Below, one piece after another: positions 13,206-37,264 of a DNA stretch of 64,000 nt; positions within the stretch are counted from its first letter, which is position 1, and the number at the start of each line of letters is the position of its first letter. The translations under genes were made by a program, and so were the position numbers. Origin of the DNA: Caenorhabditis elegans (lineage: Eukaryota > Nematoda > Chromadorea > Rhabditida > Rhabditidae); assembly GCF_000002985.6 (NCBI RefSeq), contig NC_003280.10, forward strand, positions 10,350,501-10,414,500. The letters run 5' to 3'. The notes beneath the pieces were generated by a model that was given only the letters and a program-made list of their open reading frames with translations, had not been told where the DNA came from and ran no database searches.

Positions 13206-16200
13206 TCAGTGCAGTTGTAAGCGTTTCTGGAAAAAAGATAATAAAATTCTTTGCTCTTAACCAAGTTTTATATTCCGAAAAACTCCAAACTCACATTTTT
13301 GTCTCGGATGTACTTCTTCCGATTATTTTTGAACCAGTTGTTCACCTGAAAAATTAGATTATTATATCTGTAATGCTAAAAATTTGTTTTTTTTTAATCT
13401 TACAGTCATCTCAAACAAAAATAACTTACCCTTGTCTTGTCGAGATTCATTGATTCAGCAACCTCCTCAGCGTCTTTTTTCGGAACACTCCCGTGGAATC
13501 GCTCTTGTACAATCCTCAGCTCGTTCTTAAATTATTCATTAAAACTGAGGACCACCGATTCAAAATCTTGTTTTTTTTTCTAAAATTTTAACGCTGTTTC
13601 GCAAAGGAAAAATTACACTCCAATCTAAAAAAAAACACCACTTTTTTAAGAACTGATTTAAAAAAAAAAAACATGTAAATTGACTTTTTTTTCTGAATCT
13701 ACGATAAAGAAATCATAATACGACAATTCACCTAATATATTTTAAAGCTTTTACCTAACTTTTTACGTTTATATTTTAATAATCCCTACCGAGATTGTAT
13801 TGGAAAAATTCTGCCGGGGTCGTCGTTTTTGTTGCTGAACTGGAACCACTTCTGGAGAATCTTCAGAATCGGCCCTGTAAAAGAAAAGTGAGGGTTTTGG
13901 AACTGAATTTTTAAGGAAAACGAGGCAGCTTTGGTTTTGGAAGTTGATTTCGTTTTATGATATTTATGTAGTTTAAAAATAAATAAAATAGAGGGGCCGA
14001 ATTTGAATTACCGCATTAATGGATGTCCGCGGGAACTCAAATTTGTTTACTGTCGAAAAAAGTTTTAAACAAAATTTTTAACTGAATAATAATTGCTTCT
14101 AATACTTTGATAAACCACCGAAATCAAAACATACTCTGAAGAATAATTATTTTCGGCTTCTTTACTCTTAACGTTTTTCTCATGAGGATACATTCTTTGA
14201 CGATTGAAGTATTCTAAAAAATATATGTACATTAAAATTATTTAAAACTCCCACAATATATTTCCTCAAACCTTCTCTAACTTGATCATCTGTCAATCGA
14301 ATGTTTTTTCGATGAATAATTGGGAATGGTTCCAACGGATCATTGAAATTTCTTGTATGCTCAGCCTCTGCAATTTCATCGGAATTTCTTTTCATATTCC
14401 GAGTTGTGAGTTCTTTTTGTGCAGATGGCAAGGCTGCTATCCTCGAAATTTGCACCACATCGTCTCTGTGATCAGAAGAACGAGGAAGGTGTTGAAGTTT
14501 GTGATTCGATTTCAACGTGTTTCTCGAATTTTCGAGTACACTAGCAAATGAGGACTTTTTGCTATTTGTGGCTCTTTGAGCACCCAATGGGTTTATACCG
14601 GGATGTTTCACACCTAAAAATTGGGCCTGTCCAGGAGACACCTGATTCCTTATGTCATCCAAAGTCATGCAAGGTATCGATTTGGCATCTGGTGGTAATG
14701 AAGATGAAACAGAAATTGAAACTACTTTTCCCGAATCACCAAAATGAAAACTTATAGCGTCTCCTTTACATGGGACCATTTTTCCTGTTGCTTGTCCGTA
14801 ATTGGAGACACTCAATGACTCCCCGATTGAGAAAATCTGATATTAATTTTGTGTATTATATTTAATGAGTAAAACTAAATACCTCCTCTGGTAATTCTTC
14901 ACCCATCTGAAGTCTCGATATGGCTTGTTGGATCAAACTTCCTGAAATAAATATTTTAGATCATTGATTAATATTCAAAACCATTTTTTAAGTTACCAGG
15001 ATACTCTTCAGATTGTAGCTGGATTCTGTGCAGCCTGAAATTTAGACAAATGATATATATATATATATATTGAAATATTTCAGACCCACCTCTCTTGTCT
15101 AAGCGCATACTCTTCAAGTGTATCCATTTTTTTCTGGTTAAGCGTGTTCGAGTATTTTTCTTGGATATATTCAATCAAAAGTTGTAGTGCGTTTGCCTTG
15201 ACGTTGTCACTGAATTGTAAAAAATGGATTACGACATCTTATCGTTTAGTTTTAGTTTGTAGTTTTCAGTTCTAAATGTGTTCGAAGAAACTTTTTAAAA
15301 AATGCTTTCAGCCAGATTAATAGATTTGTCGATATTTCTGATTAGAGACTTTAAAGAATATGAATGAATTTCGGAATCCTCTCGGATTCATGATACTCTG
15401 AAAAATCATATTTATTGGGTAACGAGAGAAATCATTATCAAAGATCATATATATACTTGATGGTCAGTTTTTTTGATTGAACTGGAAGCTTCTGACACCT
15501 AGAAAAATTTTGTAATTAAATTCTCAAAGCGCTTAAAATTTGAAACAAACCCTCGAAGAAACTTTTTCAAAAAACTTCATTTTAATTCAGATATTAATTT
15601 TTAAAATTATGAAAACTAAAAAAAATCTTCCAATAAAAAAAGATCATATATATGCTTGATGGTCAGTTTTTTCGATTGAACTGGAAGCTTCTGACACCTA
15701 GAAAAATTTTGTAATTAAATTCTGAGAGCGCTTAAAATTTGAAACAAATCCCCGAGAAAACTTTTTCAAAAAACTTCATTTTAATTCAGATATTAATTTT
15801 TAAAATATGAAAACTAAAAAAATCTTCCAATAAAAAAACGTTATATATGCGTTATGGTCAGTTTTTTCGATTGAACTGGAAGCTTCTGGCACCTAGAAAA
15901 ATGTTGTAATTAAATTCTGAAAGCGCTTAAAATTTGAAACAAGTCCCCAAAGTCAAAATGTTGGAAAAAAACTAATTTCAAGAGTAATTAGTCAAAGTTT
16001 GACAGGAAGGGTTTTTTTAATCTCGAGTAGGTGATAAAGGATTGGCAATGTTTTGCAGGAAATTGGCCATGTACTGCAGAAAGTTAAGAATGTTCAGCAA
16101 AAAATTTGCAAGTTCTCAATGTGCAAACAATTATAACCGGATGCATTCTTCTGTATGGTATTATCCCACACATGACATGACCGCAACGCATGAAATCAGG

Positions 16201-17411: not shown

Positions 17412-19082
17412 TTAAGAATCTTCGGAATAATCTAATCCATTAAAGGTTGTGGCAGCTTCTTCTTGCGATCGAACCTTGTCCTTTCGTCGTCGATTTTGGA
17501 ACCATACTTTAAGCTGGAAAGCAGAACATTTTAGAAGTTTGACTAGAAATAATTTTTTTGGGACGTACTCTATGATAATCAATCGATAAAGTCTTGCACA
17601 TTGTCTCACGTTTCCTAGGATCCGCACACGCATTCGGGTCCTCCTCATAATATTTTTCGAGTATATTCAACTCCTGCGTCGAGTACACAATTCGTCCACG
17701 CCTCGTTTTTCCGTTTACGGTTACTGAAGTTATAGATTTTTAAATGAAAGCCTATTAAATTTACGAAGACTTACACATTGGCGGAACTTGGCGCTTGCCA
17801 TTCGGCGTTTGGCCTGCGTTTTTTGAAGGGGAGGATTTCTGAAATTTTAAGAACAATTAGAAATGTTCTATTTTTTAAATAGTTATCTATCGAACAATAA
17901 CTCACTATATTCTGACCAGTTACGCTGAAAATATTCGGTTGAGAAGTGATGAAGTTGGTTAAAAAATCTGGATTCCATTGAGAAGTTCCCTGGAAAATAA
18001 TTACAATTTTTTAAAAAATTACACGAGGTCTAGGTTAAACCCAAAATATATAAGATTTCAGTAATTAATATACGATAAAACGTACATAATCCTCATCATC
18101 GACATCATAAATATTGCTAGAATTGGATGCTCCATCATCACTACTTCCTCCTGATCCAGTAAACTGCATTTCATGGTTTCTGAAAAAGAAACATTAGTTT
18201 TTGTATCCATATTTTCCAGCGGACGTCCAAAACGCTTGGTTTCGAAATTGCATTCAACATTTTTTAAAGTAGTCTTTCATGTCTACTACTAGGAAAAATA
18301 CTGTATTTTGATAACATTTTGCAAATTTTTACCATGAAAGCTTCATGATTTTTTCACTGAACAATATCCAAAAAACGAACCCATTTTGTAATGCAGCTAG
18401 AACCGTGTCCAACACATTCCCATCGTCATCATCAAGTATAATCGTTTCAGTTTTCACTTTCACTGGCTCCACAACTCGGCTCTTTTTGATCTCCGGCGTG
18501 TCAATTTCTTCTGCGATCGATTGTTTTCGTTTCACAACCACCGGATGAATTCCATTTGAGACAATAGACTCTCGTTGTGGAAGAAGTGGCTTTAGAACTG
18601 GAGTCGCAATTGGAGCAGGTGCTATCGTTTTTGGAGTCGGGGGTTCTTCTTGATGCTCATCGGAACTTGTTGTAGTTGGAACTGATGAGCTGTCCGGATT
18701 GGCATGTGGGGTACACGAGCATTTCGGACAGATTTTTTGAATATTATCCACAATTGAGACGGGAGTCCCGTAGTCGGCTACCTGAAGGTAATTATTACAT
18801 CAAAATGTATTGGGTTTATAACTTCAAACATTAAAAAAATTGCTTCTAAAATTACACTTTTTAAAATATTTACTCTCTGGGTTCAATAATAAATTTACCC
18901 GTTTTTCAGCTAATTTTTTAATTTATAATAGATTTTAAGTTTAGTTTCAATATTTTGTTCCAAATTGGAAATTTTTATAGGCTGATTAAAAAGCTCACCA
19001 ATTGATTAATTATTGGCCCGATCAGGTCTCGATGTTGGTCAACGTTTACCAAGACAAACATGTTGCCTTGAAAGGCGGACAT
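17412..19082 (-). CDS. ceh-58: atypical homeodomain factor with CPxC N-terminal module
   Basis: Seven exons (19082-18999, 18781-18381, 18179-18086, 17989-17906, 17838-17775, 17723-17569, 17513-17412) join to 327 residues. Residues 8-50 form a compact module beginning MFVLVNV and ending SIVDNIQKICPKCSC; the same module opens the zinc-finger protein at 34.9 kb. Then come a Ser/Thr/Pro-rich linker (about 50-100), a basic patch (VVVKRKQ), a KKSRVVEPVKVKTE segment with possible SUMO sites, and an acidic stretch (LDDDDGN, VDDEDY). The homeodomain is at about 248-311 (KTRRGRIVYSTQELNILE ... LKVWFQNRRRKDK), with Gln50 and Asn51. The loop between helices 1 and 2 seems about two residues longer than usual. 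It lies about 550 bp downstream of and in the same orientation as the other homeobox gene's start. The symbol is from memory of the C07E3.6 locus. Confidence 0.85.
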
Positions 19083-19950
19083 TTTTGAGGTAGTATCCTG
19101 AAAAAATTAATTAAAATATGTTTTTAAAAACAATACAAAATCAATTTAAAAATTAGAACGTTTCGAAATTACAGAAGAGGACGTTTCAATCAAATAAGAA
19201 AAATTAGGCTGAAAGAAAGAAAAGCTAAGAAATTTCTGTTCAACCAATCAATACGTGGATGGAAGGACATGGGGAGAGACCGAGGCACTTAATTAGTTGG
19301 AATAATTGATTTAATTATCTCATCTCTTGCCTCTCCGTAGAATTATAAAAGAGACGGAGAGTAGAAGTGCCAACAATTGGAGAACATTTTAATCTCAAAT
19401 CACAAAGAATGCTCTCTGGCATACACCAAAAGGTCCAATAAAACCAAACGCCTCACTCTCACCAATTTGCCCGCTTGGAGAAGGTTCGTTCTTTTCAATT
19501 GAACATTTTGGAGTCATAGACAGTGAGAGGAAGAGGCAAGAAAGAGGAAAGAAAAACGGAAGAAAAAGTGGAAGACTGTGGAGAAGATTATGAGGAGGAT
19601 AATTGAAATGGGGGAGAAGGTGGAGAAAAGTATATGTGATTTGGAGTGAAAAGTCTCTTGATTTCGTGAAAAATCAAAAAAGGAAAGTTTATAATTGGAG
19701 AGCTATTTTCTAAAGAAAAAGGAGATCAAGTTCAGTTTACCGGGTAGATCAAAAATGAATTTCTAGAAAATGTTGCTATAGATTTTTTCTAGCACTGAAA
19801 CCTTTATTTGATTTCCATGATAAGTATACTAAGTTAAGGGTGGAATATCGTCTAAATACCAAATTTTCCAAAAAATGTGAACCCCTTGAATTTTTGAATA
19901 CAAACAGTTGAAATGCAATTACAATAAAATTAATGTTGGAAAATAATTAT

Positions 19951-20040
19951 GACCAACTTCCAAAATTAATTTTAGAAGTTGACCGACTTCCAAAATTAAT
20001 TTTAGAAGTTGGCCGACTTCCAAAATTAATTTTGGAGTTT
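19951..20040. repeat. tandem repeat of a 30-base palindrome
   Basis: About three copies of a unit close to GACCGACTTCCAAAATTAAT-TTTAGAAGTT are arranged head to tail. Each unit is itself nearly palindromic (ACTTCCAAAATTAATTTTAGAAGT). Small differences (GACC, GGCC, TTTTGGAG) separate the copies. Confidence 0.75.
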
Positions 20041-23000
20041 TGAAAAGGTTTTACTACGATATTTAGACATTTTAGCACTTTAAGTGTTCAATGAATGGTA
20101 TTTTTTAATGAAAATGCATAACTCGATAGGTAATCACAGGCCTAGAATAACTTGCGGCACGATCACTACAAAAGATTCAAACTTAGGTTTTACCAGGATA
20201 ATAATAGATGATACGGCAAAAATGGATAACTTGTAGAACTTGTCTTCTTGAACAATTAGCTAGACATTGATTAGACTATAGTCTTGCAGTAATTTATTTT
20301 TAAAAAAATCTGAAATTTGGGCAAAAAAAAATCAAATATCACTAAAGTTTTTCCAAAAAAAAGTGCCTTCACAGTTTCTCTACAACATACTACGAAACCC
20401 TACCAAAAGTTCTCAGCGATTAGTTAATTGCCGCTGTGTGTTTAGAAAGATGTGGTTGGTTGGTGGTTAAGTGGTGGTAGACGAGAGATACGAGAGGATC
20501 AGACGACGAGAGAAAGGAGAAAAGGGTCCTTTAGTCGTCGTTCACTCTCTATGTTTATTTGAAGAAAATCGGAGGATTTCTCGTCTCTCTCGCACATCTA
20601 TCCTACTGCTTTTGAATGTGAATGAATTTAGATGGAATGCCTGAAGACATTGATGGACGCTTTCGGATGGATGCTGATGAAGGAGCAGCTTTGAATGGGG
20701 TGGTGCTGGTCGTGCTTGTGGGAAAGTTTTAGAAGATTCAATGTGAATAATAACGGGCATTGAATGGTCCATAAGGATTTGGAATTTGATTTAGAGGGTT
20801 TTGGAGGAGTGAGTTGCAACATTCAAATATGATAGCTAACATAGCAAAAACTGGTAAAAATTGCTATACTTTCAATTTAATACACCAGAATAATTTAGAA
20901 TCTAGATTTTACATGAATTTTTGTTCAGCTTCTGATATTCTCACACACTTTGCAAATATAGAAACATTCGTGGAATACAGATTCCAAGTTTTGGATTTAA
21001 AAAATTGCAAAAAATGTTGTTTTGCTCGGCTCCCATAATTAATTATAAATGTAAATGGTTTCTTTTGCAAAGAATTTTTTAATGTTTTGCAAACCTCTTT
21101 GATAAGTTTCTAATGGAAAAATCACTGCGAGAACTGTTTTAAAACTCTCTGAAATTGCTCATTTGGCATGAGTTTTCAAGAAATCATATGATTAGCTCAT
21201 AACGAAAGGTTGCTTCACTGAGCAATTATCAACAGCATTCTGTTTTCCAGTTGTGCATCTGAGCAAACAAGCTGAAAAAATTATAGAACTAATCATCAAA
21301 TCTAGATGTGATTATCAGGATTCTGATAAGACTACAAATAAAGTTTATTCATGGTAACAAAAATTAGCCAATGCAATTATAGTATTAGGAAATAAAAAAA
21401 ATTGCTTTGAGACGGCCGAGGCATTGCTCACTGTCAAAGTACAGCTCAAGATTTTTTGCTGAACTTTCAAAAAAATTAATTAAAATGTGAACATGAAAAG
21501 TGCATAAATCTATACTATCAATCATGTGAATTCAAGAAAAAATTCAGGCAGGAAAGAGGTATGCCTGAAGAAATGCCTGATATAATTTGAATAGCGCATT
21601 CTGATAGAAAAGATTAACTAGATAAATAGAACAAGTTTAAAAAAACGGGTTTAATTGGGGAAAAATCATTAAAAAATATACCGAATTTTTTTCTATAAGG
21701 TTTACGACCCCTATTGCCTTAATTTCACGGTCATTTGGTTTTATCAAAAAAAAATTTGCAGAAACAAAATACGTGCCAAAAATTTTCCTATATCAATAGT
21801 TGAACATACTTTTGTAAAATCGAAGTTAACTTAGATATGAGCTGTCAAAATAGAGCATAGAGTAAGACTAATTGAAAAAAAACACTATTTTTAATGCTTT
21901 TCAATGTTGCTAATTAGTATCTTTAGAATATAGAAAAGTGGTAATTTCTTTCGAAACCCTAAATGTAATATCGTATCTTCCTAGAATATATGTGTGCTAA
22001 CTAAAAAATCGATGTCCTTTATGCTAAATTGTGTGACCGAAATTGGCAGAAACGCGCTCCATTCCCCTTCCCCTCCAAATTGGTCGATAATTATGTCTTT
22101 TGAAAAGACGAAAACCCCGGTGTGAGAGAGTTAACAGACGTAGACAAGAATATTGTATAAATACATATTTTGTTTTGGAAACAAACGAACGAATAAGACA
22201 GAGAAGGAGGGAAAGAACAAAATAATAGAATTTCGAGAAATGCTTCCCCGGTGTCTGCCCGTTTCTATTGAAATTTGAGACGTTTTTTGGTGGTTTGACT
22301 GCTTTTGTTGGAAACTGGAAAAATGTTTTTTAGAGGAATAATGGATCATTTTTAGAGACTAAATATTAAAAAGTTGTTTGCTAAAATTAATTATGTACAT
22401 TAGAATTTGGTAGATCTATGCCGCCATGAAAAACTAGTCTGTGCAGAGAACATTGGCTCCGCAAAACCTTCTCAGACAATTACATATAAGGAATTTTCAG
22501 AGATTCTCCACTTTTATTGCAGCTATATTTTTAGACTTTATTTAAAAGTTTAAATACTGTTTTTTTTCTTAAAAAATATTTGAACTTTGTAATTATTACC
22601 AAAAAGTGTGAAAAAATATAATTTATAATTAGTTTCGCAATAATCAAAGTATGTTTAATTACCAACGCACGCCCAGACAAAATTGTGTGTGTTTACAGGT
22701 GATAATCAAAACTTGCTGATATATTTATTCAACGCTCAATTATCATTCATTATCAGTGATTGTCATTTTCCTCAAATTTATTTTTGATGAAATTTAATAT
22801 TTACCAAAATATTATACTGGTACAGGATAGCACTAGTGGTCAACAATCTTTTGGCGGCGTCTATTTTTGAGTTTTTATAGCGATTTTTATAAGTAATTAA
22901 GATATAAAAATATTTTTATTGGTGTTTAGTGTTCAAGGTATTCAAACATTTTGTTGAATTAAATTTTTAAGTAAAACAATAAATTTCAAAAAAATGTTGT

Positions 23001-24538
23001 AATTTTCCCTTATAAAACTAATTTTTCGAATTAATTAGAGTCCACACTGTAACAAAGCAATAGAATACTTTAAAACAGTCAAAATACACGGAACTACGTA
23101 AAAAGAAAGAATGAGAAAAGCGAGGCGACGAGGCCATCTGCCCGATAATTGGGTGCGGTTTAGCACGAAGAGAAGGGTGGCAATTTATGATAATTAGGGC
23201 TAACGCGCCCTGCGTACACACACATACACATGAATCGATGGAAAATGCAATTTTCTGTGAGAGAGTGGGACGAGAGACATAAATTGTGCCTGCAAATTGC
23301 ATGTTTGGATGGGAAAATATAGCAGACGTATAATTGGGTTAAGTGAAACTGAATTAATTGGTGTTTAAAAAATTAAAATTAGTACGCCTCAACAATTAAT
23401 TTATTCAGAAATTAGAGTTTTACTGTAAAACTGAATGTGTAGTTTTTACAATTATCTTAAACCTATAGTCAATTATCGATCGATAATTAATTAGTGAGCA
23501 TCTGAAATAAGAACGCAACCAAGTGGAAATAAAATAAGACTATTCAGCTGGTATAATGGAATAGGCGTGGGGAGAAAAGGAAACTAGCCTCCTAATTAGC
23601 TTTGATAATGAGGACAAGCTCCTATGGTTGAATGGCTCTTCTTCAGCGTAAACGGGTGAGCAAAGGCAGAAAGGCATTCTCTTAGAGAACTCGCTATTTT
23701 TTACTTGTAATGAATGAGTCACGGGAGCTTTTGAAAGTTCAAAACAATGGTATTAGGATTTTCGAAATAAAATATGTAGATAGTTTTTGGAGGAAAATTT
23801 CTTCAAAAATTTATATAAAAAATTGACAAATTTGCGATTGAATGAGGCTCTTGATTTTGTGATAAGAGTGTGGCAAGAGTTGGGTCAAAATTGGGTTAAG
23901 CTTTAGCTCATCTTAAAACCAAGTTTTGCCAAAGTCTTTTGCCAAACTTTTGCACAGCTTTTGCCCAAGTTTAGCCAACTTCTGATGAGTTGATATTTCT
24001 TGGACCAAATTCTGCACATTCCTAACATTATGATTAACATAAGTTGGAATATTGTATGGTTACATTATAGACGAGTATAGATAAGCGGTAGAAAAATTAT
24101 TCAACACACTGGATCATTTTAAGAAAATGTAGTTGTCCTAAAGACTTAGAAAAAATTGAGCCAATAATCCCAAAAGTGATAGGCCACTTTAGATACGTTC
24201 CCTTATGGCCCCTTACGGAAAATTATTTGCTGTGACTCACTTTTAGCAGCAAACTTACTAATCCCAATATGTCTAAGTAACACAAGACATTTTATATTAT
24301 GGGTCACTCATAAAAGGAAAAGAGCCGAAATGATGATGATGGTGGTGGTGGTGGTCTGTGGGGCCCCTTGGACAAATACACACATAAATGAGTAAGATGT
24401 GTGAGAGGTAAAGCCAGGTGGAGGTAGTAGATGAAGACAAGCAAAACAAGAGACGGGCGGCACCAATGGCTACTTACGTGGAATTTGGTTTAAGTGTAAT
24501 TAGGAGGACAGAGACGAAGAAGAAGGGATTAGACGGAC

Positions 24539-24560
24539 GGGGGGGGGGGGGGGGGGGGGG
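24539..24560 (+). repeat. 22-base guanine tract
   Basis: An uninterrupted run of 22 G on the plus strand, preceded by AGACGGAC and followed by CACACC. Runs of 18 or more G can form G-quadruplexes and in C. elegans are known deletion hotspots when the FANCJ-like helicase DOG-1 is missing. The exact length should be treated as uncertain because homopolymers are hard to sequence. Confidence 0.9.
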
Positions 24561-25460
24561 CACACCTTGAAGGAGCTATCAAATGTTTAAGATGGAGAAA
24601 GAGGGATAGAAATTGTATACATTAAGAGGATAATTAGTTTTTGGATTATATTTCAGAAATTAGGGATTTATTATGAAAGAGTTATTCTAATTAGCTAGTT
24701 TTCCAAATTTACTTGAAATTTGAGATTAGCAAATGCACTTCTAGAAAATTAATTTAAAATTAACAATTTATTCAAAATAATAAAATTTCTTTTTTCAGCA
24801 ACCATAGGCGAATGTGGATTTGAGAATCTTGAAAAAAAATTGGGAAGTAGACTGCCTGATTGTGCTCCCAGCGGGCTCTTATTCCTGACCAAAGAGAAGC
24901 CATAGCTAACTACTGTAGAAGCTTAATATTAGTATTGGTAGCCTTACGAGCAACTTGAAAATTAGTTTCGCAGCATTTATGTTTGTTTCCTATGTTCTTT
25001 AAAAAAATTTATATAACTTCCAAAATAGAACAGTAAAATTTCTATGCTAATAGGGAACACGGCTTAGAACAAGCTTGTTTAGCAAAATTTTACCAACTGA
25101 TGAATTTCTCCAACAGGAAATCAAAAATGCTTTTCAGAAAACTAAGCGTAATGGTTAATCAAATTTAGATCAGTTACAGTAAATTGTTATACTCAGAGCT
25201 TGCTCAGCTTTTAGCATATGAAATGCTCAATATTGATGCAGCGCGGAAAAACAAGTTTTCCTTCGCCAAGACTTCCGATTAATATTAGTATCTTCTGGCT
25301 CTATATCCAAGGAATTATCTTCTTCTTCGGCTGCTACTGCTGTCGTTGATGCCCACCACTTTCAATAACGTGTTAATAACACTAATAATCATACTAATCA
25401 TAAATATAATATCATAATATACATGCCGCGAATAGACGATTAGAGACGCTCAGAGACCAT

Positions 25461-25848
25461 ATGAGAATTGAGAGATTTTCAGCGGATTATATCCCGTCAC
25501 TGGATTTTGTACCTGCAGTTATGGAGCACCACAATAATTTTTATGGAATTGGAGAAGAAGAAGATTATGAAAGCAGAACTAAGAAGCACTCAAGGATTCG
25601 AAGAAGATTGCTCAAAATAGAAAGCTGGTACCACCCTTTTAAAGTAATTGGGAAAGCGTGTTCGTAACGAGGTCCTGGATAAAATTGAGTCCGTTGGATT
25701 CTTACAGGGCCTGTACGAATTTTTTAGTGATAACTCACAAAACAAATTCTCAACTTCAGGTGTACCAAGTATTGTGGAGCAGTATCCTAATGCGTTTTCA
25801 TTTGCACTTTTTGTTCCGAGAAAGCCGGGTATACCTCAAACTGTGTAA
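25461..25848 (+). pseudogene. coding-like fragment with a frame change
   Basis: A frame from 25461 reads a plausible soluble protein (DYIPSLDFVPAVMEHHNNFY, then GIGEEEDYESRTKKHSRIRR, ending KIESWYHPFKVIGK). At about 25655 the coding-like character moves to another frame (RVRNEVLDKIESVGFLQGLY, ending PRKPGIPQTV and a stop at 25848). No good intron explains the shift. I do not recognise the family. It may be a decayed gene or a transposon remnant, or chance. Confidence 0.25.
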
Positions 25849-28800
25849 ATTGGTTATATTGGCTATGAAGTTCAAAAATATGTATTTAGTTATCGCCAGT
25901 TGGCTTGGAACTTGGAAATTTCATTTTAACAATAATTTACTCAAAGGATATCATATATGTACCTTAAAATTATCAAAATTTGCAACATAAATAGAGATAG
26001 AAACAAGGATTTTTGAAAGATCATTTTTGCCAATTTTTCAGTTCAAATAATCATGAAATTGGAAATTTCCACACATTCCAGCTAAAAGCAAGTTATCTCT
26101 TCGTAGAATAGATTCACTACTATAAAAATTGAACACACCGAATTAAATATAAAAATTTAAGCTCTTCAAGTATTAAAGAGCTACTTAGTATTTTTGTCAG
26201 AAGAGTGGGAAAAAGAAGCTGCTGCACATTTTCAGTCAATAGAGATAAATAAGTGGTTAATAACATAATATCGTTGAATAGACTTGTCATAGATTGGTGG
26301 TAGTCACAAGATGGGCGGAGAGTGGTTGAGTGTGGAGATAAAGATAATTTGAAGACTGAGATTGATGTCAAAAGAGAGCTCTTCTGTGTACATATGATGT
26401 CAATTGGAATATGGAAAATTACTTCTATGGAGCTACAGATTTTGAGTCATGAAACCATCTGCAATATGAACTCTCCAAACCCAGGGTTGCGTTGTAATCG
26501 GCAACTGTAGAATTCGCGAAAAATGAAAATACAATTCAATTAACGGAATAATTTTGGAAATTTTCAATCCTGACAATATCTAAAATTCAATAAACTTTAG
26601 TGTCCCGACATGTTCTGAGTTAAAAACTGTGCTCACTGATATTTAAGACACTTCCAGTGTAGAAATTAACTTTTTTTTTCAGGTCTAACATAAATTTGCA
26701 TAATTTTGAAATCTATGATATATTTTTGTCAGGTCTGACATACGGCACTTTTAGAAATTATTGGTAATTTAAAATGTTTTCCAAATTCAAAAAATCGTCT
26801 CCTGACAAAGTTTTCCAAAATTTGCAAACCTACCAAAAATCCTTTTCTGTAAAATTTTATGTGGAATTAAAATGTTTTCAAAATTTTCATTATTTCGGCA
26901 ATCGGAGGTAACTTCTTGTATACAGTTGGCAATTCGTTTAAAAAATTTAATATGCACCATAGGCTTATGAGTTGCTGATAGATTGTATCCACTTTGTTGA
27001 ATCCTCTGAAATTTTATGCTTTTAAAATGGCTTGAAACATTCTCTTCTCGGCTGCTAAAATTAAAAACGGCAGTTTAAATATTGTTACAACTCGTTAAAA
27101 AGAACTAACCTAGTAAGATTATTTTCATAGATTATCTATTTTTATACTCCATCTCATTTTCCAAACCAATGATAAATAAGGACTAATTGTAAATTGAGTG
27201 TCCAGTTTTAATTGCCAAATCTATGTGCATATTTCTAAATATCCGAAACTGTAATGTTGTATGCTTCAATTCAATTAAGTATGTTTTCCAAGTTTCGACA
27301 GGTTTTCCATTTTTGTTTTCCAGTGCCACCAAACGAATATTGTACGTTTTCTTGCTCCTGCAGGATCCTCAAATTCCCAAGCATAAATTTTTTGAAATGC
27401 TATCAATAAATTGAAACAGAAACCGTTAAAAATACGAAAGTGCCGAATTTCCAAAAACCCCCGGTGAAACCGTCAAAATTACGAACAAAATGTGTAAAAA
27501 TTGGCGGAGCGGCGCCTCTGGCGGCAGCGCTCGTCTTACAAATTGATGGCATCAGGTAGACGACGAAAAGTGTGTGTGAGATGAAGAGACACAGACAATC
27601 GAAATGCCTGGTGCCACCACTTCTCTTTCTTCTTTCTTTTTTTCATTTTTCTTTCTTTTTTGTGTCATGTCCTTGATGAAGGCGATGGGTTATTGAATAC
27701 GTCGGTAATACTTGTGCCGTAGAAGATTCTGTAGAAGTTTTGAGCATTTCCAGAAAAATAAATCGGAGAATGAGGAACTGGAAAAGAAGTCTGAAAAATA
27801 TTTTTTCTAATTTTTTGAGCCTCGATTTAGATCAAAATATATGTCAAGAGTCCCAAGGACTACTCCAGGTTAGAAGATTTCTCGGCAAGAACACCTGAAA
27901 ATCCAAATAAATGTTGATCGACCATCGAATGATGCTCTCTGAAAAGTCACCGAATGATATTTTTTATGTTCTATGTTGTACACATCTAAAATTGAGCATG
28001 TCAGACGCACAACTTTTAATCATACATTGGAATTTTGCATAAAAAATACTCGAAATTTGTATTTTCAAAAATAGGCTGATCTCCCTGTTCGAATCCCCTC
28101 TAAAATTAGAACTGCAAGACTAATCAGCGATTTGCTCCGTTCCTTTTTGAACCAATCAGATCAGGTGTGCCTCATTTTCCAAAACCCACTTTTAATGAAA
28201 AACCCTTCGTTAAACGGCAAATTTAGATCTAACTTTCCACCAGTCAAAATTAATTTTCATTTAGAAATCTTTCCATGTAAAACGAGAGGACAAATTACGT
28301 TGCTGTGAGACTTTCCAATCCGACAAGACAGAAAGGTATGAAAAATGAGAAATTGAACCTCACTAGCATTTTTCGAAAATTGAAATGTGTCAGAGAGGAG
28401 ATGTTTGGCGCAATTGTAACAATGTTTGTCCCCTTTTTAGTATTCTCGTGTGCCTCATATCGCTCCACAAAAAGTTTTTTTTTTGTCGCGGCCTCCCCCC
28501 GGTGTCCACCTTCATGGACACCAACGGATAGATATTATGAATCGAAAGGGGAGTGTGAGCATCAAAACATGAAGGCGTCGGGAAGGCTCCGTTATTTCAT
28601 AATGTTGCTTATTGTGAGTCTGCCAAACCGGACTAAACCACACTTCGTCGATAAAATGAATTCCAGAAGTATGTACAGTATAAAACTTGAATTGTTTGAA
28701 ATATGCACATTTCAAATAATTATAATTTTTGTACTACAAAAGGTAACATATATTTCATAAAACAAAGCTATTGTAAAAAGTTCACATTTATAAAAATGTA

Positions 28801-29591
28801 GCAAAAAATTTCGAGTCGAGAAAAACTTGAAATTGTTTCACCGCAAATTAACAGTAGTACCACAAATCTATATATTTTCTTAAGGTAAAGCATGGCTTTT
28901 TACAATGCTTAACGTCTAGATGACAAAAGTTTTCAGTTCATGTCTCAAATTCAAGACTTCTCATTCAGTTATAATATTTAATTAGGTTTTAATTATTCGC
29001 GTTTGAACATTCTAGAGATTGGAACTTGCAGATGGCTATGTTTGAAAACTGCTTGAAATTTTCAGAAAATCTAGAAACTTTCAGTATGAACTTATAATAT
29101 CCCGACAGATGATGTTTCACTAATTGAACACCTCCCCCTCATCATCTCCCTTATCCACCATTCTTCGAAAAGGGTTTTGGCGTCGTCGAGAGCACACGTA
29201 GAGCTCTCCTCCTCTTCTTCCTGCTTCTTCTCTTCTTTTTCTTTTTTCATCGCGCGTCCCCGGCTCCGTGTGCTCGGCGCCGTGGCTCACCACACACCAA
29301 CACACGCATGTGCAGAGACACCCAATACAACGCCAAAGAGAGACAGCCTCACTCACCTCTTCTTTTTCTATTTTTTCTTCTCTTTTCCCAGTGACGACGA
29401 CCACGTCTTCTACTTCAAACTTCCACCCACACAAGCCCACCCCAGTCACCGCACTTCATCATTATACTTGAGTTTTGAAGTTTGACATCTGAAATTTTCC
29501 ATATAAGGTAGGCAATTTGAAATTCTCAGAATGAGAATTTAGTCATGATCTTGAAATTTCAGAATTCATGAGATGGCACTAACAAATTTGC

Positions 29592-29814
29592 TCACCGTTC
29601 CCTATTAGACTTGTACCCTCACTACTTTACTTTGACGGTATATATCTCTGTTGTCTTAAGTTTTATAAAAAACTTTCAACAATGAAAATATAGAGAAATA
29701 CTTTACACGTATTTTGTCAGTTTAATTTTTTTTAAAATAAAATTTAAGACGGCCAAGATATAAACTGTCAAAGTAAAAAAAGGAGGATGCAATTCTAATA
29801 GGAAAAATACGGTA
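29592..29814. mobile_element. small foldback MITE
   Basis: The left arm (CCCTATTAGACTTG ... CTTTGACGGTATATATCT ... GTCTTAA) is matched inverted by the right arm (TTAAGACGGCCAAGATATAAAC ... CTAATAGGAAAAATACGGTA, shown in parts). There is no open frame. The end ATACGGTA is shared with other foldback elements in the window (58917-59314 and near 51567). Confidence 0.65.
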
Positions 29815-30090
29815 TTATTTTATACACCTAGGCTTCTTATCTCATGAAATCATTAGGACTAGAAATTGGACTAACCTTACTAGGGAATGGTGTTACCCCT
29901 GCAATCGCTAGGAGGACAAAACAAAGTGAAAATGGAAGATCAGATCTATGGCTACAAGAATCAGTTTTTGGAATCTGCTTAACTCGGTCCCAAAGCTGAA
30001 ATTTTTGGCCTTAAAAATTAGTGCTTTTTTTGCTCAAAATGCCGTTTTTCGTGTGTAGAAGTGGCTACATAAAAGTTTGGCACTGCAGCC

Positions 30091-30163
30091 GCCGTTCGAA
30101 TGGCCGATTGGTGAACTCTCGTGCTCATTAATCTAAAGGTCACGGGTTCGTTCCCCACTAGGT
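30091..30163 (+). repeat. tRNA-like sequence, left arm
   Basis: An A-box (TGGCCGATTGG, 30101-30111) and a B-box-like sequence (GGTTCGTTCCC, 30145-30155) are spaced as in a tRNA, with TTAATCTAAAGGTCACGGG between, reminiscent of the anticodon-variable-T region of tRNAs such as tRNA-Asn. The acceptor and T stems do not pair well, so this is not a functional tRNA. It may still act as a pol III promoter. Confidence 0.5.
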
Positions 30164-31167
30164 ATTAATTTTTTTTTTGAATTTTTCCTCTAGCATGAAA
30201 TATGCACAAAAACACGGTTTCTTCCGTTTTTGGGTAACTTCGGAATAAATTTTTTGGTTCCTGGGAATCATAAAAGTAATTTGGAAACTTTTTGGAAGTT
30301 TTCTTTTTTTGATAAATTTTCACTTTTCTCCCACCTGTCCCACCCTTTTCTCCCACCTGATGTATGCACATTTTTTTCTTCAAAAATAATTTTTCAAAAT
30401 TTTTTCAAAAAGTGTTTGGTTTGAAAGAGCAGCATTAGTTTGGATATTTCTACGATTTTGGAGGATCAAATGTCATTTTTAGGAGAAAACCACTGTTGTT
30501 TTATCTAGAGTTTTTCACGACAAGGACCTACTTTCAAAGACTTCCAGCTCCGTTGACGAGTAAAATAAAAAAAAGTTGTCAACTGCAAAGTTATTTTAAA
30601 AGTACCAATAAACAAATTCTGCTAAATTTTATGGGTAGACGGAAATAGCTAATCGAAGTGAAGCTTTAACTTACTTAATTACTAATGTCCATATCTCTCT
30701 ACCCATAAAATTTAGCAGAGTAACTTCAACTGACAATTTGTTTATTGGTACTTTTAAAATAACTTTGCAGTTGACAACTTTTTTTTATTTTACTCTTCAA
30801 CGGAGCTGGAAGTCTTTGAAAGTAGGTCCTTTTCGTGAAAAACTCTAGATAAAACAACAGTGGTTTTCTCCTAAAAATGACATTTGATCCTCCAAAATCG
30901 TAGAAATATCCAAACTAATGCTGCTCTTTCAAACCAAACACTTTTTGAAAAAACTTTGAAAAATTATTTTTGAAGAAAAAAATGTGCATACATCAGGTGG
31001 GAGAAAAGTGAAAATTTATCAAAAAAAGAAAACTTCCAAAAAGTTTCCAAATTACTTTTATGATTCCCAGGAACCAAAAAATTTATTCCGAAGTTACCCA
31101 AAAACGGAAGAAACCGTGTTTTTGTGCATATTTCATGCTAGAGGAAAAATTCAAAAAAAAAATTAAT

Positions 31168-31240
31168 ACCTAGTGGGGAACGAACCCGTGACCTTTAGAT
31201 TAATGAGCACGAGAGTTCACCAATCGGCCATTCGAACGGC
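31168..31240 (-). repeat. tRNA-like sequence, right arm
   Basis: Inverted copy of the left-arm tRNA-like segment. The complement of the A-box is CCAATCGGCCA at 31220-31230 and that of the B-box region is GGGAACGAACC near 31176-31186. The two copies point toward the centre of the element, so both putative pol III promoters would transcribe inward. Confidence 0.5.
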
Positions 31241-31451
31241 GGCGGCAGTGCCAAACTTTTATGTAGCCACTTCTACACACGAAAAACGGCATTTTGAGCA
31301 AAAAAAGCACTAATTTTTAAGGCCAAAAATTTCAGCTTTGGGACCGAGTTAAGCAGATTCCAAAAACTGATTCTTGTAGCCATAGATCTGATCTTCCATT
31401 TTCACTTTGTTTTGTCCTCCTAGCGATTGCAGGGGTAACACCATTCCCTAG

Positions 31452-34400
31452 TTAGCTAATTGTAAGTATTGAGCACCGAGTTATATATGTCTGAATCCGG
31501 GCTCTTCCAGCATATGTTTGGTACGATGTTATGCTCTTAATTTCTACTGAGTGCCAAGTTCTAGATTTTCCAGTTTAAAATCCCTAGACTTTTCATATTT
31601 TGTTGTTTGTTGCTTTTTTAAAGAACTTAGCTCTGAAGGGCCCTGTCTTTCTGTTCTCCTGAAATTTTCATTAAATTTAATATATTTTTCCATTGGTTTC
31701 CATCTCGTCCACATAGTGTTGTGGGTTGTTGGGTGTCGCCAAAAAGATTTCCTACGGCGGCGGTGACGAGGTCTTCGTCCACTGTGTCTCCCTGTGTGAA
31801 AGAGTGTGCGGGAAAGGCTCCCGCACACACACAAAAGTTCAATAAGATAGTACATCGATCATGGAGAGCGTAGAGATATAGGGGGACACCCGCGCCCTCT
31901 TTCCCCCACACTACCCGTCGCCACTCTTCTTTTCCATTCCCCCACTTCCCCACCGCCCTATTGCATTGTCACTGTCTGGATGAATCTCTTTGATTTGTAC
32001 ACTATTTCGTCTATTTCGTTCGCCAGGAGGTTCTTGTCTTTTTCTACTTCTCTTTCTCTGTCTGTCTAACCATGGGGGCACTGTTGTGTCATAACACAAA
32101 CACAGAGACAGTATGGTGTCGGGTCGGGCGCGTCCCCCCGTTTTCCCCCCATGTCCCTCCACTTTTCTCCATTCCTTTCGTTATATTGTTCGATTTTTCA
32201 TATTTTATGAGTTTCTTATTGAACGATTGCAACGTTCTCTTTTAGCTACAGTAACCCCTCGGGACCTTTTTTCCAAATTTCCTTTCAATGTCAGTGGATT
32301 ATGTTCCAAATATAATTTTATGTTAGTTATATCCATAGTGCCTCAAAAAATATCAGAGCTTCAGAAAACCCTCTCCTCTCATCCAATCTATCCATTCTAA
32401 CCAATTATTCCCCCTTCCAATTCTTATAAGACCATACAAACCTTTCAAGAAGCTTCAATGTGTATGTTTGTCTATAATCGTATAAGCTTCATCTTGTGCT
32501 CCATGTCCTCTCATTCCTCCTTATCTACTCATTGGCAATGAATCTATTTAGTTTTATTTGAGTGTGTGTGTCTCGGACCAAAAAATGAGTGAGCCCTCTA
32601 TGAAGAAGACGTGAAACAAAAATATGTGAAGGGTAAGGAGCGGCGGGTGGTGGGTAAAGTGTGGGAATATGGGAGGTGGAGAGGATTTGAGACAAATTTT
32701 GAGCTAATATGGTAAAGTGGGAACGTGTGTTGGATAAACTTTTTTTCAAATTGAAAATGGTTTGTAGATCTAGAAGCCAGGAAGCCACTGTCGGTAGGGC
32801 GTACAGGCCGGTGAGAGGTGCCTGCTAACGCCTAGGCGGGTTAGAGTCTGAGATCTTTTGGCAAGTCTAGAAATCTGTTTATTTGATTCAAAAATTTATA
32901 TAGAAATCCAAATAGGAAAGTTCACAAAAATCCTTTCAGCTAGTTTATTATCGTACCAAATTGAACCGTTTTTCGACCTAAAAGTTGCTGAAAAAGGATC
33001 TCGGTAACTTTAGCCCTACATACCTTCAAATCCCTCATACCATCCCACTCGAAAATACGGAAAGAACTTACAAATTCTCCCTTTTCTTCCCCCACATTTC
33101 GCTCTCCAGTAGGTTTAATCGAATCACACCTGCGACAGCGCATGGCGCCGAATACACGACACCACGCTCCCCGCATAGTCCTACAAAAAAATTGTTGTAG
33201 ATGCTGTCTCTTTGTGGGGGATTTTTTTGTATTCTTTTTCTCTCCCTCTCTCCCTCTTCGAGATTCGCCAAATTGATTCTCGCGCCACTGGGGCAATAGC
33301 GGCGGCGGCAGCGGTAACAGCAATACAGACGGTCCTAACGCAATTTGTCATGTCTCTCATTTTTTGTGAGGAGAGTAACTGTAGTAGTAGTAGGTGGGTA
33401 ATTGGGCAATAGAAAACAGCAGCAAACTGAATGTTACAAAAACAGTTATTTGGTGGATTTTGTGACATGTAGGTGTGAGGACTGCTGCTGGAATTCAGAT
33501 ATATTCCAGGAGCTGACGTTTGCTCACTGACATGGAAGAAGTACTGGAGGATGGCAATATAATTAAAATTTGGAAATTCTGGAAATTCAAAAGAAAAACG
33601 TAGCAAATTTGATACTTTGGAATGTACATCTCAAAGCTAACCTAGGTAATAACTAGGTACCTAGGAAGATGTCATTTTCAGGACTCCTCAAAACTCCTGG
33701 AAGTGGAATCTACGAAAAACTTGTATTAAAACACTCATAATAGTGCAAAACACTCGAATATTGAAATTAAACACTTTCCAAAAATTGTCACATTTCTCAA
33801 TTTTTCAGTCAGTTTTGGTAAATTGCAAAAGTTTTTTGAGGCTTTAATTGGGTATTTGGCTACTTTATCATAAGAGTGATTTTGAATAAGTTCCCAACTG
33901 TCCCTACTTCAGTTTTGAGTTAATAAACATTTGCTGTAACTTGATAGCAGAAGCATTATTGAGCAAAACCATTAGACTTATGAAACGATAGTTTTTTTTT
34001 GTCGAATTTTCAAACATTTTAATTTGAAGAGCACTGTTTATTTTTTAATCTACAAAATGAAAGCCAACTCTTGAATCAGTTACCAAAAGCCTATATATAT
34101 ACATCCAGCTACAGGCTACAATTAGCCCCTATTGTTGCATTCAACCTCTAAAACACATAAAGTTCAGTTGTTTCACCACCCGAATTTCAGAATTCTTGGC
34201 CATAAAACTCTCGCCTCCACACCTTTCATGTGTCTCCCTAAAACGATGTTTACTTCCATTCTCCCCCCACCTCCATTTCGTTTCGCCTCTTCTTCCCATT
34301 TTCCCTTTGGCCTTCTACCTACTCCCGACGGGCGAAACTTCTCTGCATCTTCCCTATCTCTTCTCTCTTTCTCTCTCTGTTTCTATTTCTTTCTCTTTTT

Positions 34401-34852
34401 CTCCATTCACAACGTGGCGCGGATGGGTGTACAGGCCGGTGTATCAGATAGCGGCAAAAGATCGGAGGGCACTAGACACCACCACACGATATTTGCAAAG
34501 TGATGATGAAGATGATGAAGTCAATTCTCTCACTGGGTCTCGCGACGAAAAGACACCAAGTGGGCGTACGGGTCATAGTTACGTTATTATTGCAATTTGC
34601 AACAATTCGATTTCATTCAGCATACACCAAAATCACAATCTTTCTCTCATTTCTCGGTTTCCTCTATGTGATTTCTCTTGTCTCCCATGGTGTGGAGGTG
34701 TATAGACTTCTATATTGATTTCCCTATTACTCTTATCATTCCCCTTCTTCCCACCACGGGAACTTCAAATTGATTTCTCCTGTATTTTACTTCTTTTCAA
34801 ATTTTTTGGGTTTTGAAGATTGCATTTTGCAGAACCTGACACACACTCAAAA
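31452..34852. other. pyrimidine-rich upstream region of the zinc-finger gene
   Basis: About 3.4 kb with no convincing exon. The plus strand has many C/T-rich tracts (for example 31900-32160, 33225-33265, 34255-34400) and a GCGGCGGCGG patch near 33299. Frames of 100-140 codons exist on both strands but are low complexity and overlap each other. This is probably promoter and outron sequence for the gene beginning at 34853. Confidence 0.5.
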
Positions 34853-37264
34853 ATGTATGTCTTGCTCAACTTGAAGGATGACAAAATGCTGCAGAACGTG
34901 GTGCAGTTATTGGTGAGTTTTTAATATCTATTCGTTGCACCATGACTTTTTTGTTCAAAAAAAGTCTGACTTTCGAGTGAAAACTGTAATATATTGATGT
35001 TTCAACTAGAAAAATCCAAAAACATTTAATAGCATTTGGGTCTGCTAAATATTTAGCAAACTCAAATTTGATGTTTTTTTTTAAATTTTTTGATGAAAAA
35101 ATCTTGAGAAAACCAAATCAAAAACCTTTTTTCCTAAAATGTACCTAGAACTGTCAGTTATGTACAGATTTCTAAATTCCCAAACTTTTCAGTTCGCCCA
35201 CGGTCACCGACAGCTCTCTATTGGTGAAACGATCGAAAATCTGTGTCCAACGTGTGAAAAGACATCATCAAATCAACCAATGTCTACCGTGACGTCATCG
35301 ACAACATCACCCATAACCCCATCGACACCACCACGAGCTTCCTCCTCCTCATCAATGTTTGCTGCTTCATCACCGTCCGCCGCCGCAACATACAGTACGG
35401 TAACGACGGCTGCTCTTGTTGTTCCAACGACACTGCAATCGCCGAAACGAGAATTCGTATGTTCGACGCCGATTAAGAATGGAACTTCGGACGCGAAGGT
35501 ATGATGTGCTAGATTTGAACTTGGCAAAGCTTTTTTTATATTTTGAGAAGCCTTCATTTGAAAACGAGATAGCTACAAAAATACTGTGTAGCATTTCAAT
35601 ACAGTCTTGTTTAGAAGAAAATATCGTCAATTGGAAAGATGTTTAAAGCCACTCGCTAAAATGGCCAAAAAAAACATTTTGAATTAAAAAAAAAAATCAG
35701 AAAGTGGCAATTTAGACTCACTATTCACATATCATAAATAATTTTGGAAATTGCCAAAAAAATATTATACGGGTTTTATGATGGGAAATCGGTGATTCGG
35801 CAAAATTCCGGAATTGAAAATTTCCGGCAAATCGACAAACCGGCATTTTGCCTTTTTGCCGAATTTGTCGACAAAAAAACAACCTTATTCAGCCGAATTT
35901 TTTATTCTGGTAACTTATGAAATTTAAATATTTTAAATTATGTAGAGCAATAATTTTTCATATTTACACGTCGTTTTTCTTCTATAAATTTAATATTTCA
36001 GTCTCATCTCAAACGACCATTCGTGCCAATCTCCCCAATCCTACCTCATCGTGCTCCACAAGAAATCCAAAAATATGAAGAAGTGAGTGTAAAAGAAGAA
36101 CCGAGTGATGAAGGTAATGAGGATCCTGATATGTCTGTAGACGTTGATGAAGACCTAGAAGATCTCACTCTCAGTCAAGCACTTGAACTTTTTGATAGGG
36201 TAAGTGTGCTTTCAGAATCACGTGGATGCTATTTTGAATTTAGACAAACTTTCAGGAACCACGTACCAAGAAAGCAAAAGCTGATGAGCCATTTGGAGAG
36301 CTTTATCAGTGTCAGTTATGTAAGAAGAGCATCTCAAGGCATGGACAATACGCCAATCTTTTGAATCATTTGTCAAGGCATGCAAGGTTACATGCATCGA
36401 AGAAACAATATTGGTTAGTCTTTTTATTTATAAAATGTAATCCTTGATGCCGAAACATTTCATTTGATGATCTTTTTTCAGTTGTCCAAAATGTGGAGCC
36501 AGCTTCACAAGGAGGTACCTAGCATCTACTCACATTAAGGAAGTTCATGGAGAGCCGAAGCTTCAGCCTCATGATTTTGCGTAAGTTTTTCTCACGGCAA
36601 CTGTATGGTTTTCAAGCTAAAAATACGGTACCAGGTCTTGGCACGACAATTTTTTGTAAAATGCGGGTAGGTGTGCACCATTGAAGAGTACTGTAATTTA
36701 AACTTTCATTTCTGCGCAATTTTTATCGATTTTTAACAGTTTTCCTAGCGGTTTGGCAAAATTCAACTGTTTTCATTGCTATATTCGGGGTTTCAAGAAA
36801 TAAATATATATTTTATCGAAAATCTTTTAAAAATCTATGAAAATTGTGCAAAATAAAAGTTTAAAACTACAGTACCCTTTAAAGGCGCACACATACTCGC
36901 AATTAATAAAAACTGTCGTGTCGAGACCGGGTACCGTATATATTATACTTTTGGCGTAAAAACCGCAACATTTTGCGTCTGGGTCAAAAAAATCTTCAAT
37001 ATTTCTCCACAAACGCAACAATTTTACAGAGCCGAACTCCGCGAGGAATACCGTCGGCTTCTTGAAATGTGCTTCCCTGGAGCTGATAATCGCCGGAAAC
37101 AGCAACAAGCAGTCACACAGGCAACAAAAGATTCCATTCTCAATATTCTTTCCGATGATAGTGGAGTTTCCGTCAACGATTCTTCTGATTTGAATATTTC
37201 TGTGGGAAATGAAAAAATCGAAGTACATGTTGGAACGGCTGATGGTGATGAAGATTCTTCATGA
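34853..37264 (+). CDS. C2H2 zinc-finger protein with CPxC N-terminal module
   Basis: Six exons (34853-34912, 35193-35498, 36002-36199, 36256-36413, 36482-36580, 37030-37264) join to 351 residues. Residues 1-41 begin MYVLLNLKDD and end LSIGETIENLCPTC, matching the N terminus of the ceh-58 protein. A Ser/Thr/Pro/Ala-rich linker follows (about 50-100). Next come SVKEEPSDEG, a possible SUMO site, and an acidic stretch (VDVDEDLEDLTLSQALELF). Two zinc fingers follow: YQCQLCKKSISRHGQYANLL with two His after it (unusual spacing), then CPKCGASFTRRYLASTHIKE with VH after it (classical). The C terminus is Gln-rich then acidic (DGDEDSS). It is likely a nuclear DNA-binding regulator. The start follows a TTTTGCAG acceptor. 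Intron 5 contains a foldback repeat. From memory possibly T09F3.1. Confidence 0.88.
36620..36942. repeat. foldback repeat in intron 5
   Basis: The left end (ATACGGTACCAGGTCTTGGC) is mirrored at the right end (GTCGTGTCGAGACCGGGTAC, then CG). Inside, GAGTACTGTAATTTAAACTTT is matched inverted by GTTTAAAACTACAGTACCCT. It belongs to a family with shorter copies elsewhere in the window. Confidence 0.7.

What the first reader, a model, noticed from the sequence alone, without database searches (positions are those of the whole stretch)
18700..35260. A homeodomain protein and a zinc-finger protein share an undescribed N-terminal module with a conserved intron
Seen: the minus-strand homeobox gene (exons 19082-18999 and 18781-18381) and the plus-strand C2H2 gene (exons 34853-34912 and 35193-35498) start alike. 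First halves: M-[FY]-V-L-[VL]-N-[VL], then 13-14 residues to a terminal Leu. Then a phase-0 intron at the same point in both. Second halves are both 21 residues: VADYGTPVSIVDNIQKICPK plus C, against FAHGHRQLSIGETIENLCPT plus C, sharing A, SI, I and CPxC at fixed spacing. Both then enter a Ser/Thr/Pro linker and acidic patches. Inference: exon shuffling or duplication of a two-exon module between two unrelated transcription factors 16 kb apart, giving a common partner-binding or zinc-binding (CPxC) domain. I know no named domain like this.
Basis: partly seen in the sequence, partly recalled or inferred. Interest (0 to 1): 0.82.

Follow-up and report, generated by a model that had tools for sequence, protein, structure and literature searches.

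The report
Shared start of two worm regulators
Two C. elegans gene regulators 16 kb apart, with unrelated DNA-binding parts, begin with the same small, unnamed protein module, split by an intron at the same point, which suggests that the front end of one gene was copied to the other.

Summary
Confirmed as an observation. The window is C. elegans chromosome II (my identification). The minus-strand gene is ceh-58 (homeodomain, 327 aa). The plus-strand gene is a two-finger C2H2 protein (351 aa; T09F3.1 by recall only). They are divergent, start codons 15.8 kb apart. Their N-terminal 42 and 41 residues align with one gap (12 identities), and a phase-0 intron sits at the same aligned codon boundary. 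Among 1,744 other candidate two-exon starts in 264 kb, none came near the pair's score of 55 (best 25 and 34); nor did 20,000 shuffles (best 37). Similarity stops at CPxC: linker, acidic region and DNA-binding halves are at chance level. Pfam and PDB sequence searches gave no relative.

Common ancestry of the 5' ends is likely. Classical exon shuffling is not shown: the intron lies inside the module, whose 3' end is in mid-exon. Zinc binding is unproven: only two ligands are shared, and the insect ZAD domain was tested and rejected. Orthologs, other copies and structure could not be tested. Best reading: a small lineage-specific docking or dimerisation module, as in the published CEH-86/UCM case. 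Real, modestly novel.

The parts
18999..19082 (-). ceh-58 exon 1: MSAFQGN + first half of the module (MFVLVNVDQHRDLIGPIINQL)
   Evidence: open frame, donor GTGAGCTT, phase 0
18782..18998 (-). ceh-58 intron 1, phase 0, inside the module
   Evidence: GT...CAG; same aligned codon boundary as in the ZF gene
18719..18781 (-). ceh-58 second half of the module (VADYGTPVSIVDNIQKICPKC), start of exon 2 (exon 18381-18781)
17412..18718 (-). rest of ceh-58: S/T/P linker, basic/VKTE/acidic stretch, homeodomain in exons 17569-17723 and 17412-17513
   Evidence: spliced model of 327 aa, Pfam Homeodomain E 3e-11 at residues 250-307
34853..34912 (+). ZF gene (T09F3.1 by recall) exon 1: first half of the module (MYVLLNLKDDKMLQNVVQLL)
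   Evidence: donor GTGAGTTT, phase 0
34913..35192 (+). ZF gene intron 1, phase 0, inside the module
   Evidence: GT...CAG
35193..35255 (+). ZF gene second half of the module (FAHGHRQLSIGETIENLCPTC), start of exon 2 (exon 35193-35498)
35256..37264 (+). rest of ZF gene: S/T/P linker, VKEE/acidic stretch, two C2H2-like fingers, stop at 37264
   Evidence: six-exon model of 351 aa; finger matches below Pfam cut-offs, best E 8.2e-5

Best explanation
SHOWN: ceh-58 and the divergently transcribed C2H2 gene 15.8 kb away share a 41-42 residue N-terminal module, interrupted in both by a phase-0 intron at the same aligned position; downstream parts are not similar beyond chance. INFERRED: the two 5' gene ends have one origin. 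The start of one gene (exon 1, intron 1, beginning of exon 2, perhaps the leader) was copied locally in inverted orientation and joined to another coding region, or a duplicated gene had its DNA-binding end replaced; neither needs exon shuffling. INFERRED mechanism: the module is a small docking or dimerisation domain. It reads as a short hydrophobic strand (M[FY]VL[VL]N[VL]), an amphipathic helix, and a second helix that opens with an S-I-x-[DE] capping box and runs into CPxC. It would tether the two transcription factors to the same partner, or to each other, while their homeodomain and zinc fingers pick different DNA sites. Whether CPxC binds zinc, perhaps shared between two chains, is open.
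For: Exon structure and phases. Reciprocal best match with a wide margin in 264 kb; nothing close in a further 50 kb. Shuffle tests. The second halves alone are each other's best ungapped match over six frames of 264 kb, though narrowly (35 against 31 and 28). With the junction fixed, 1 of 1,747 other donors has a first exon scoring 20 or more, for each query. Leader CTCAAAAATG precedes 4 of 8,909 ATGs in 264 kb, both genes among them. Intron start GTGAG(N)TTTTTAAT occurs at 2 of 398 GTGAG sites, and these two introns carry it (pattern chosen after seeing them). No similarity in linker, acidic or C-terminal parts. CEH-58 is reported to bind the PDZ protein TXT-1 in yeast two-hybrid (passages of PMC9956597), so it has at least one reported protein partner; the passages do not say which region binds.
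Against: Twelve identities in 42 columns is little, and a third sequence that would prove a family is missing. The Gumbel fit would expect about one score of 55 in 264 kb; I discount it because the observed maxima (25, 34) lie far below it. Exon-2 similarity alone would not stand out genome-wide, and the first exons are not each other's best ungapped match. The module alignment pairs the ZF start Met with CEH-58 Met 8, whereas the leader match pairs the two start codons, so a 7-residue difference must be assumed. The only inverted matches joining the two gene neighbourhoods are 25-32 nt and AT-rich. The leader and donor matches may be general worm signals; the GAPDH gene has the same leader. 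Simple propensities do not single out the helices clearly. Folding, docking and zinc binding are untested.
Confidence: 0.6

Rival explanations
1. Chance: two short hydrophobic N-termini with a CPxC look alike, and a phase-0 intron happens to fall at the same place.
For: Full-length BLASTP E is only 4e-4 with filters; second halves alone beat the next best six-frame match by just 4 to 7 points, and first halves are not each other's best; Gumbel fit expects about one such score in 264 kb; the pair was picked after reading the window.
Against: Joint splice-anchored score reached by 0 of 1,744 donors and 0 of 20,000 shuffles; with the junction fixed, 1 of 1,747 other first exons scores as well, for each query; same intron boundary and phase.
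Confidence: 0.06
2. Whole-gene common ancestry: one ancestral factor with this N-terminus duplicated, and one copy later replaced its DNA-binding domain, so the whole N-terminal half (linker, SUMO-like VKxE, acidic helix) is homologous too.
For: By eye, the same order of S/T/P linker, basic patch, VKTE/VKEE, acidic stretch and short hydrophobic helix before the DNA-binding domain in both models.
Against: Linker-to-domain segments score at shuffle level (37 against mean 39.2; 31 against mean 26.9); no further intron position appears shared.
Confidence: 0.2
3. True exon shuffling of a two-exon module between unrelated factors.
For: The module spans two exons in both genes.
Against: The module's 3' end is in mid-exon in both genes, so recombination in introns would not cut it out there; only its 5' side could be bounded, by a leader intron or trans-splice site.
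Confidence: 0.08
4. The module is a degenerate half of a ZAD (zf-AD) zinc-binding dimerisation domain.
For: The solved ZADs printed end in a stretch with IC..C or similar, as here; that they are N-terminal dimerisation domains of C2H2 factors is recalled.
Against: First CxxC pair absent; PF07776 does not ring at either gene (exon by exon, two candidates scored); profile comparison with three solved ZADs aligns only six columns, probability 0.2% (on a crude ZAD alignment).
Confidence: 0.05

Closest known systems
CEH-86 / UCM (uncharacterised cysteine motif) of C. elegans, Hench et al. 2015, PMC4448998
   Same: A worm homeodomain protein shares its N-terminal Cys-bearing region with non-homeodomain genes of the same genome; the authors suggest duplication with translocation of one part to the other (passages and section 22).
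   Different: UCM runs from the N-terminus to the homeodomain with several Cys, and its relatives lie on cosmid C35E7; the passages seen do not call ceh-58 a UCM gene. UCM sequences were not seen, so no alignment was made.
ZAD (zf-AD, PF07776)
   Same: N-terminal module of transcription factors ending in a helix with [IL]CxxC.
   Different: Has four Cys; here only the last pair exists, and the profile does not match.
Rad50 zinc hook (CPxC shared by two chains)
   Same: CPxC could in principle form a two-chain Cys4 zinc site (recalled analogy).
   Different: No coiled coil, different protein context, no Pfam zinc-hook match at the module.
HOCHOB double homeodomain (ceh-91, -92, -93), PMC4448998
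   Same: Fast-evolving worm homeobox genes with an extra Cys-bearing region (passages).
   Different: HOCHOB is two divergent homeodomains with a Cys linker; this module is 42 residues and Pfam finds no homeodomain there.

Membership tests
ZAD (zf-AD, PF07776) | profile match over the domain | tested here: not met
   Own-genome search at E up to 10 gave 2 weak places, neither at ceh-58 nor at the ZF gene (it reads exon by exon); Pfam scans of module pieces and full proteins list no zf-AD
ZAD (zf-AD, PF07776) | two CxxC pairs (four Cys zinc site) | tested here: not met
   One shared CxxC (CPxC); no Cys in alignment columns 1-38
UCM (CEH-86 type) | several conserved Cys in a long N-terminal region | tested here: inconclusive
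   Module has one shared CxxC; UCM letters not available, only its description
Rad50 zinc hook | CxxC at the apex of a coiled coil | tested here: not met
   Module is 42 residues and an S/T/P-rich linker follows CPxC; the only Pfam zinc-hook listing is at the ZF gene's finger, E 3
Homeodomain (CEH-58) | homeodomain profile | tested here: met
   E 3e-11, 43.4 bits against a cut-off of 22.9; the own-genome scan lists no place in the window, the domain being split by an intron
C2H2 zinc finger (ZF gene) | C2H2 profile | tested here: inconclusive
   Matches below curated cut-offs (zf-H2C2_2 E 8.2e-5, zf-C2H2 E 0.0061); Cys/His spacing of two fingers is visible in the model
Exon-shuffled module | introns of matching phase on both sides of the unit | tested here: not met
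   Shared phase-0 intron is internal; module ends in mid-exon in both genes

The most novel reading that the evidence does not exclude
An undescribed nematode N-terminal domain lets factors with different DNA-binding domains pair through a zinc ion held by one CPxC from each chain, so that CEH-58 and its divergent C2H2 neighbour form a heterodimer reading a composite homeodomain-plus-zinc-finger site, and more worm factors carry it.
Probability: 0.1. Interest if true: 0.65.

Novelty: new variant of a known kind. Interest (0 to 1): 0.42.

Why it matters
If it holds, two factors of unrelated classes inherited the same docking piece, an instance of a transcription factor's partner surface being passed on apart from its DNA reader. 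CEH-58 is reported to act against HSF-1 in stress signalling between gut and muscle (PMC9956597, passages), so the neighbour gene would become a testable partner or competitor in that pathway.

Tried and rejected
Profile families: no Pfam match of weight at the module. The weak listings Plavaka (CEH-58 piece, E 0.095), FAM199X and AHD (ZF piece, E 0.017 and 0.074) are each below cut-off, touch one protein only and are not listed with full-length input. PDB sequence searches: best E 1.4 and 1.6 by single sequence and 0.14 by two-row profile, an aspartate carbamoyltransferase regulatory chain, residues 88-115 of the chain; rejected as noise.

ZAD: rejected. A weak zf-AD place at C2:11897501 (L026, E 0.108) is another gene with a different sequence.

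F33H1.4 as the name of the ZF gene: considered from memory and searched, then rejected, because the RFX place that I take as daf-19 (F33H1.1) lies about 190 kb left of the window and the chromosome has a second GAPDH there. T09F3.1 is recall, leaning on T09F3.3 being listed as a GAPDH gene (that table labels it gpd-2, I recall gpd-1). No paper in the library holds T09F3.1.

Other bearers of the module: own-genome searches by single protein returned only the query's own place. One candidate each was scored, even for the zinc fingers, so this is not evidence of absence. The search for related loci in bacterial and archaeal genomes: 43 stretches matched a pattern, none confirmed, as expected. ceh-57, proposed by Hench et al. 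to be a diverged copy of ceh-58, is not among the seven best listed for any half.

Paper searches that gave nothing on the point: (general listings or unrelated papers; all 10 searches used).
Full report
WHERE IT IS. The window is G000:C2:10350501-10414500 of a 100.3 Mb genome in 7 contigs, with a 15.28 Mb second contig. Genome size and gene content are those of C. elegans; no output names the species, so this is my identification. The minus-strand homeobox gene with a second, divergent homeobox gene next to it corresponds to ceh-58 and ceh-57 (C07E3.5), which Hench et al. 2015 (PMC4448998; passages and section 22 read) place side by side; C07E3.6 for ceh-58 is recall. The plus-strand C2H2 gene ends 6 kb upstream of a GAPDH gene, one of two on this contig; the other is 12 kb from the RFX place that I take as daf-19/F33H1.1. 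T09F3.3 is listed as a GAPDH gene in PMC3439400 (passage), so the C2H2 gene is probably on cosmid T09F3; T09F3.1 is recall.

CHECK OF THE OBSERVATION. Full models: ceh-58, 7 exons, 327 aa, homeodomain at 250-307 (E 3e-11); C2H2 gene, 6 exons, 351 aa, finger matches below Pfam cut-offs. The models rest on open frames and splice consensus only; no transcript data were seen. The modules align over 42 and 41 residues with one gap and 12 identities (M, V, L, N, L, A, S, I, I, C, P, C; counted from the invariant columns up to CPxC). The ZF start Met aligns with Met 8 of CEH-58.

IS IT MORE THAN CHANCE? Four tests. (a) Pairwise BLASTP: 1e-7 for the cut-out pieces, 4e-4 for the whole proteins with filters and 2e-6 without; 4e-4 is the fair figure, before allowing for the number of gene pairs a reader compares. 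(b) Shuffles: 0 of 3,000 (best 40) and 0 of 20,000 with exon-wise shuffling (best 37 against 55). (c) Real sequence: I built ATG-exons of 18-36 codons with a phase-0 GT donor (third base A, G or T) and a loose acceptor motif 38-900 nt on, over both strands of 264 kb of the chromosome (7,027 combinations). With rows using exons of the two genes set aside, 1,744 donors remained; best scores 25 (CEH-58 query) and 34 (ZF query) against 55. A further 50 kb gave 302 donors with best scores 14 and 24. A Gumbel fit to the 264 kb scores gave a far weaker figure: 0.77 and 0.99 expected at 55 or more. I think it overstates the tail, because the observed maxima are far below it, but it is a result against me. 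(d) The halves apart: the second exons are each other's best ungapped match in six frames of 264 kb, but only by 35 to 31 and 35 to 28; the first exons are not each other's best ungapped match and need the one-residue gap. With the junction fixed, 1 of 1,747 other donors has a first exon scoring 20 or more, for each query. So it is the combination, both halves at one shared splice junction, that carries the case.

WHERE THE SIMILARITY STOPS. Linker plus acidic region: score 37, shuffle mean 39.2, 1,831 of 3,000 shuffles as good. Basic/VKxE/acidic/helix segment: 31 against 26.9, 586 of 3,000. C-terminal halves: 27 against 27.6, 1,596 of 3,000. The common order of features (S/T/P linker, basic patch, VKTE or VKEE, acidic stretch, hydrophobic helix) is seen by eye only. 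Upstream, both start codons sit in CTCAAAAATG, found at 4 of 8,909 ATGs in 264 kb, one of the other two being the GAPDH start. Both introns begin GTGAG(N)TTTTTAAT, found at 2 of 398 GTGAG sites. Both patterns were chosen after seeing the genes and overlap general worm signals, so they are weak support.

HOW IT AROSE. The genes are divergent, with start codons 15,771 nt apart. In between, a codon-usage scan found no strong coding signal except a low-complexity stretch at 29205-29468, and Pfam nothing of weight in the six open frames that I chose out of 28 of at least 80 codons. The scan also missed known small exons, so genes there are not excluded. A foldback transposon sits in the gap, with no demonstrated link. 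The module's 3' border is inside exon 2 of both genes, so intron-mediated shuffling of a closed unit is not shown. An inverted copy of a 5' gene end joined to another coding region, or replacement of a DNA-binding domain after duplication, would leave what is seen. Hench et al. suggested the same kind of event for CEH-86 and the UCM motif.

HOW IT MIGHT WORK. The hydrophobic start M[FY]VL[VL]N[VL] has high strand propensity in both; S-I-x-[DE] before I..[IL]C fits a helix capping box (my reading; the simple propensities do not single out helices clearly). CPxC is half of a Cys4 site. CEH-58 has a third Cys and a His close by (CPKCSCTPH) and the ZF protein has two His before its second helix, but these are not shared. 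I commit to a docking or dimerisation module; zinc shared between chains is the bold version. CEH-58 is reported to interact with TXT-1 by yeast two-hybrid (PMC9956597, passages); the region is not stated in them.

WHAT COULD NOT BE TESTED. No nematode genome other than the window's own was available to me; the own-genome search takes no profile; structure prediction was off. So orthologs, further bearers and fold remain open. Literature: searches for ceh-58/C07E3 names (7 papers listed, 2 of them opened at passages), for worm homeodomain with CPXC and N-terminal domain (none), for shared N-termini and exon shuffling (two reviews seen in the listing only) and for T09F3.1 (none) showed no description of this shared module in that library, which lacks most subscription journals.

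VERDICT. A real, small, unnamed shared module; interpretation partly right; interest moderate.

Noticed in passing
window 29876-31455: Foldback element: arms of 462 nt (100% complementary) and 274 nt (99%), about 1.58 kb in all. The 462-nt arm has at least 45 matching places (40 of 54 candidates scored) at 83-100% identity on six contigs, mostly in inverted pairs: a DNA transposon family, one copy lying between the two genes.
   Followed up: partly
window 15440-15948: Tandem array of 2.6 copies of a 199-bp unit, 93% matches, just upstream of ceh-57.
   Followed up: no
window 13200-15250, minus strand: ceh-57 has a degenerate homeodomain end (KTRVNNWFKNNRKK across an intron) and an N-terminal stretch that looks LisH-like by eye; the module is not among the best six-frame matches there.
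   Followed up: partly
window 3500-6697, minus strand: Single open frame of 1,065 aa, Pro/Ser-rich, with repeated units such as VPGTPLQHYI(S/Y)RSRS.
   Followed up: no
window 46737-48720, plus strand: Two open frames downstream of the GAPDH gene that look RNase H-like by eye.
   Followed up: no
L026 1453-1707 minus (G000:C2:11897501): Weak zf-AD match (E 0.108, below cut-off) in an open frame with CRICL...CQSC...CPMC: a possible divergent ZAD-like protein in the worm.
   Followed up: no
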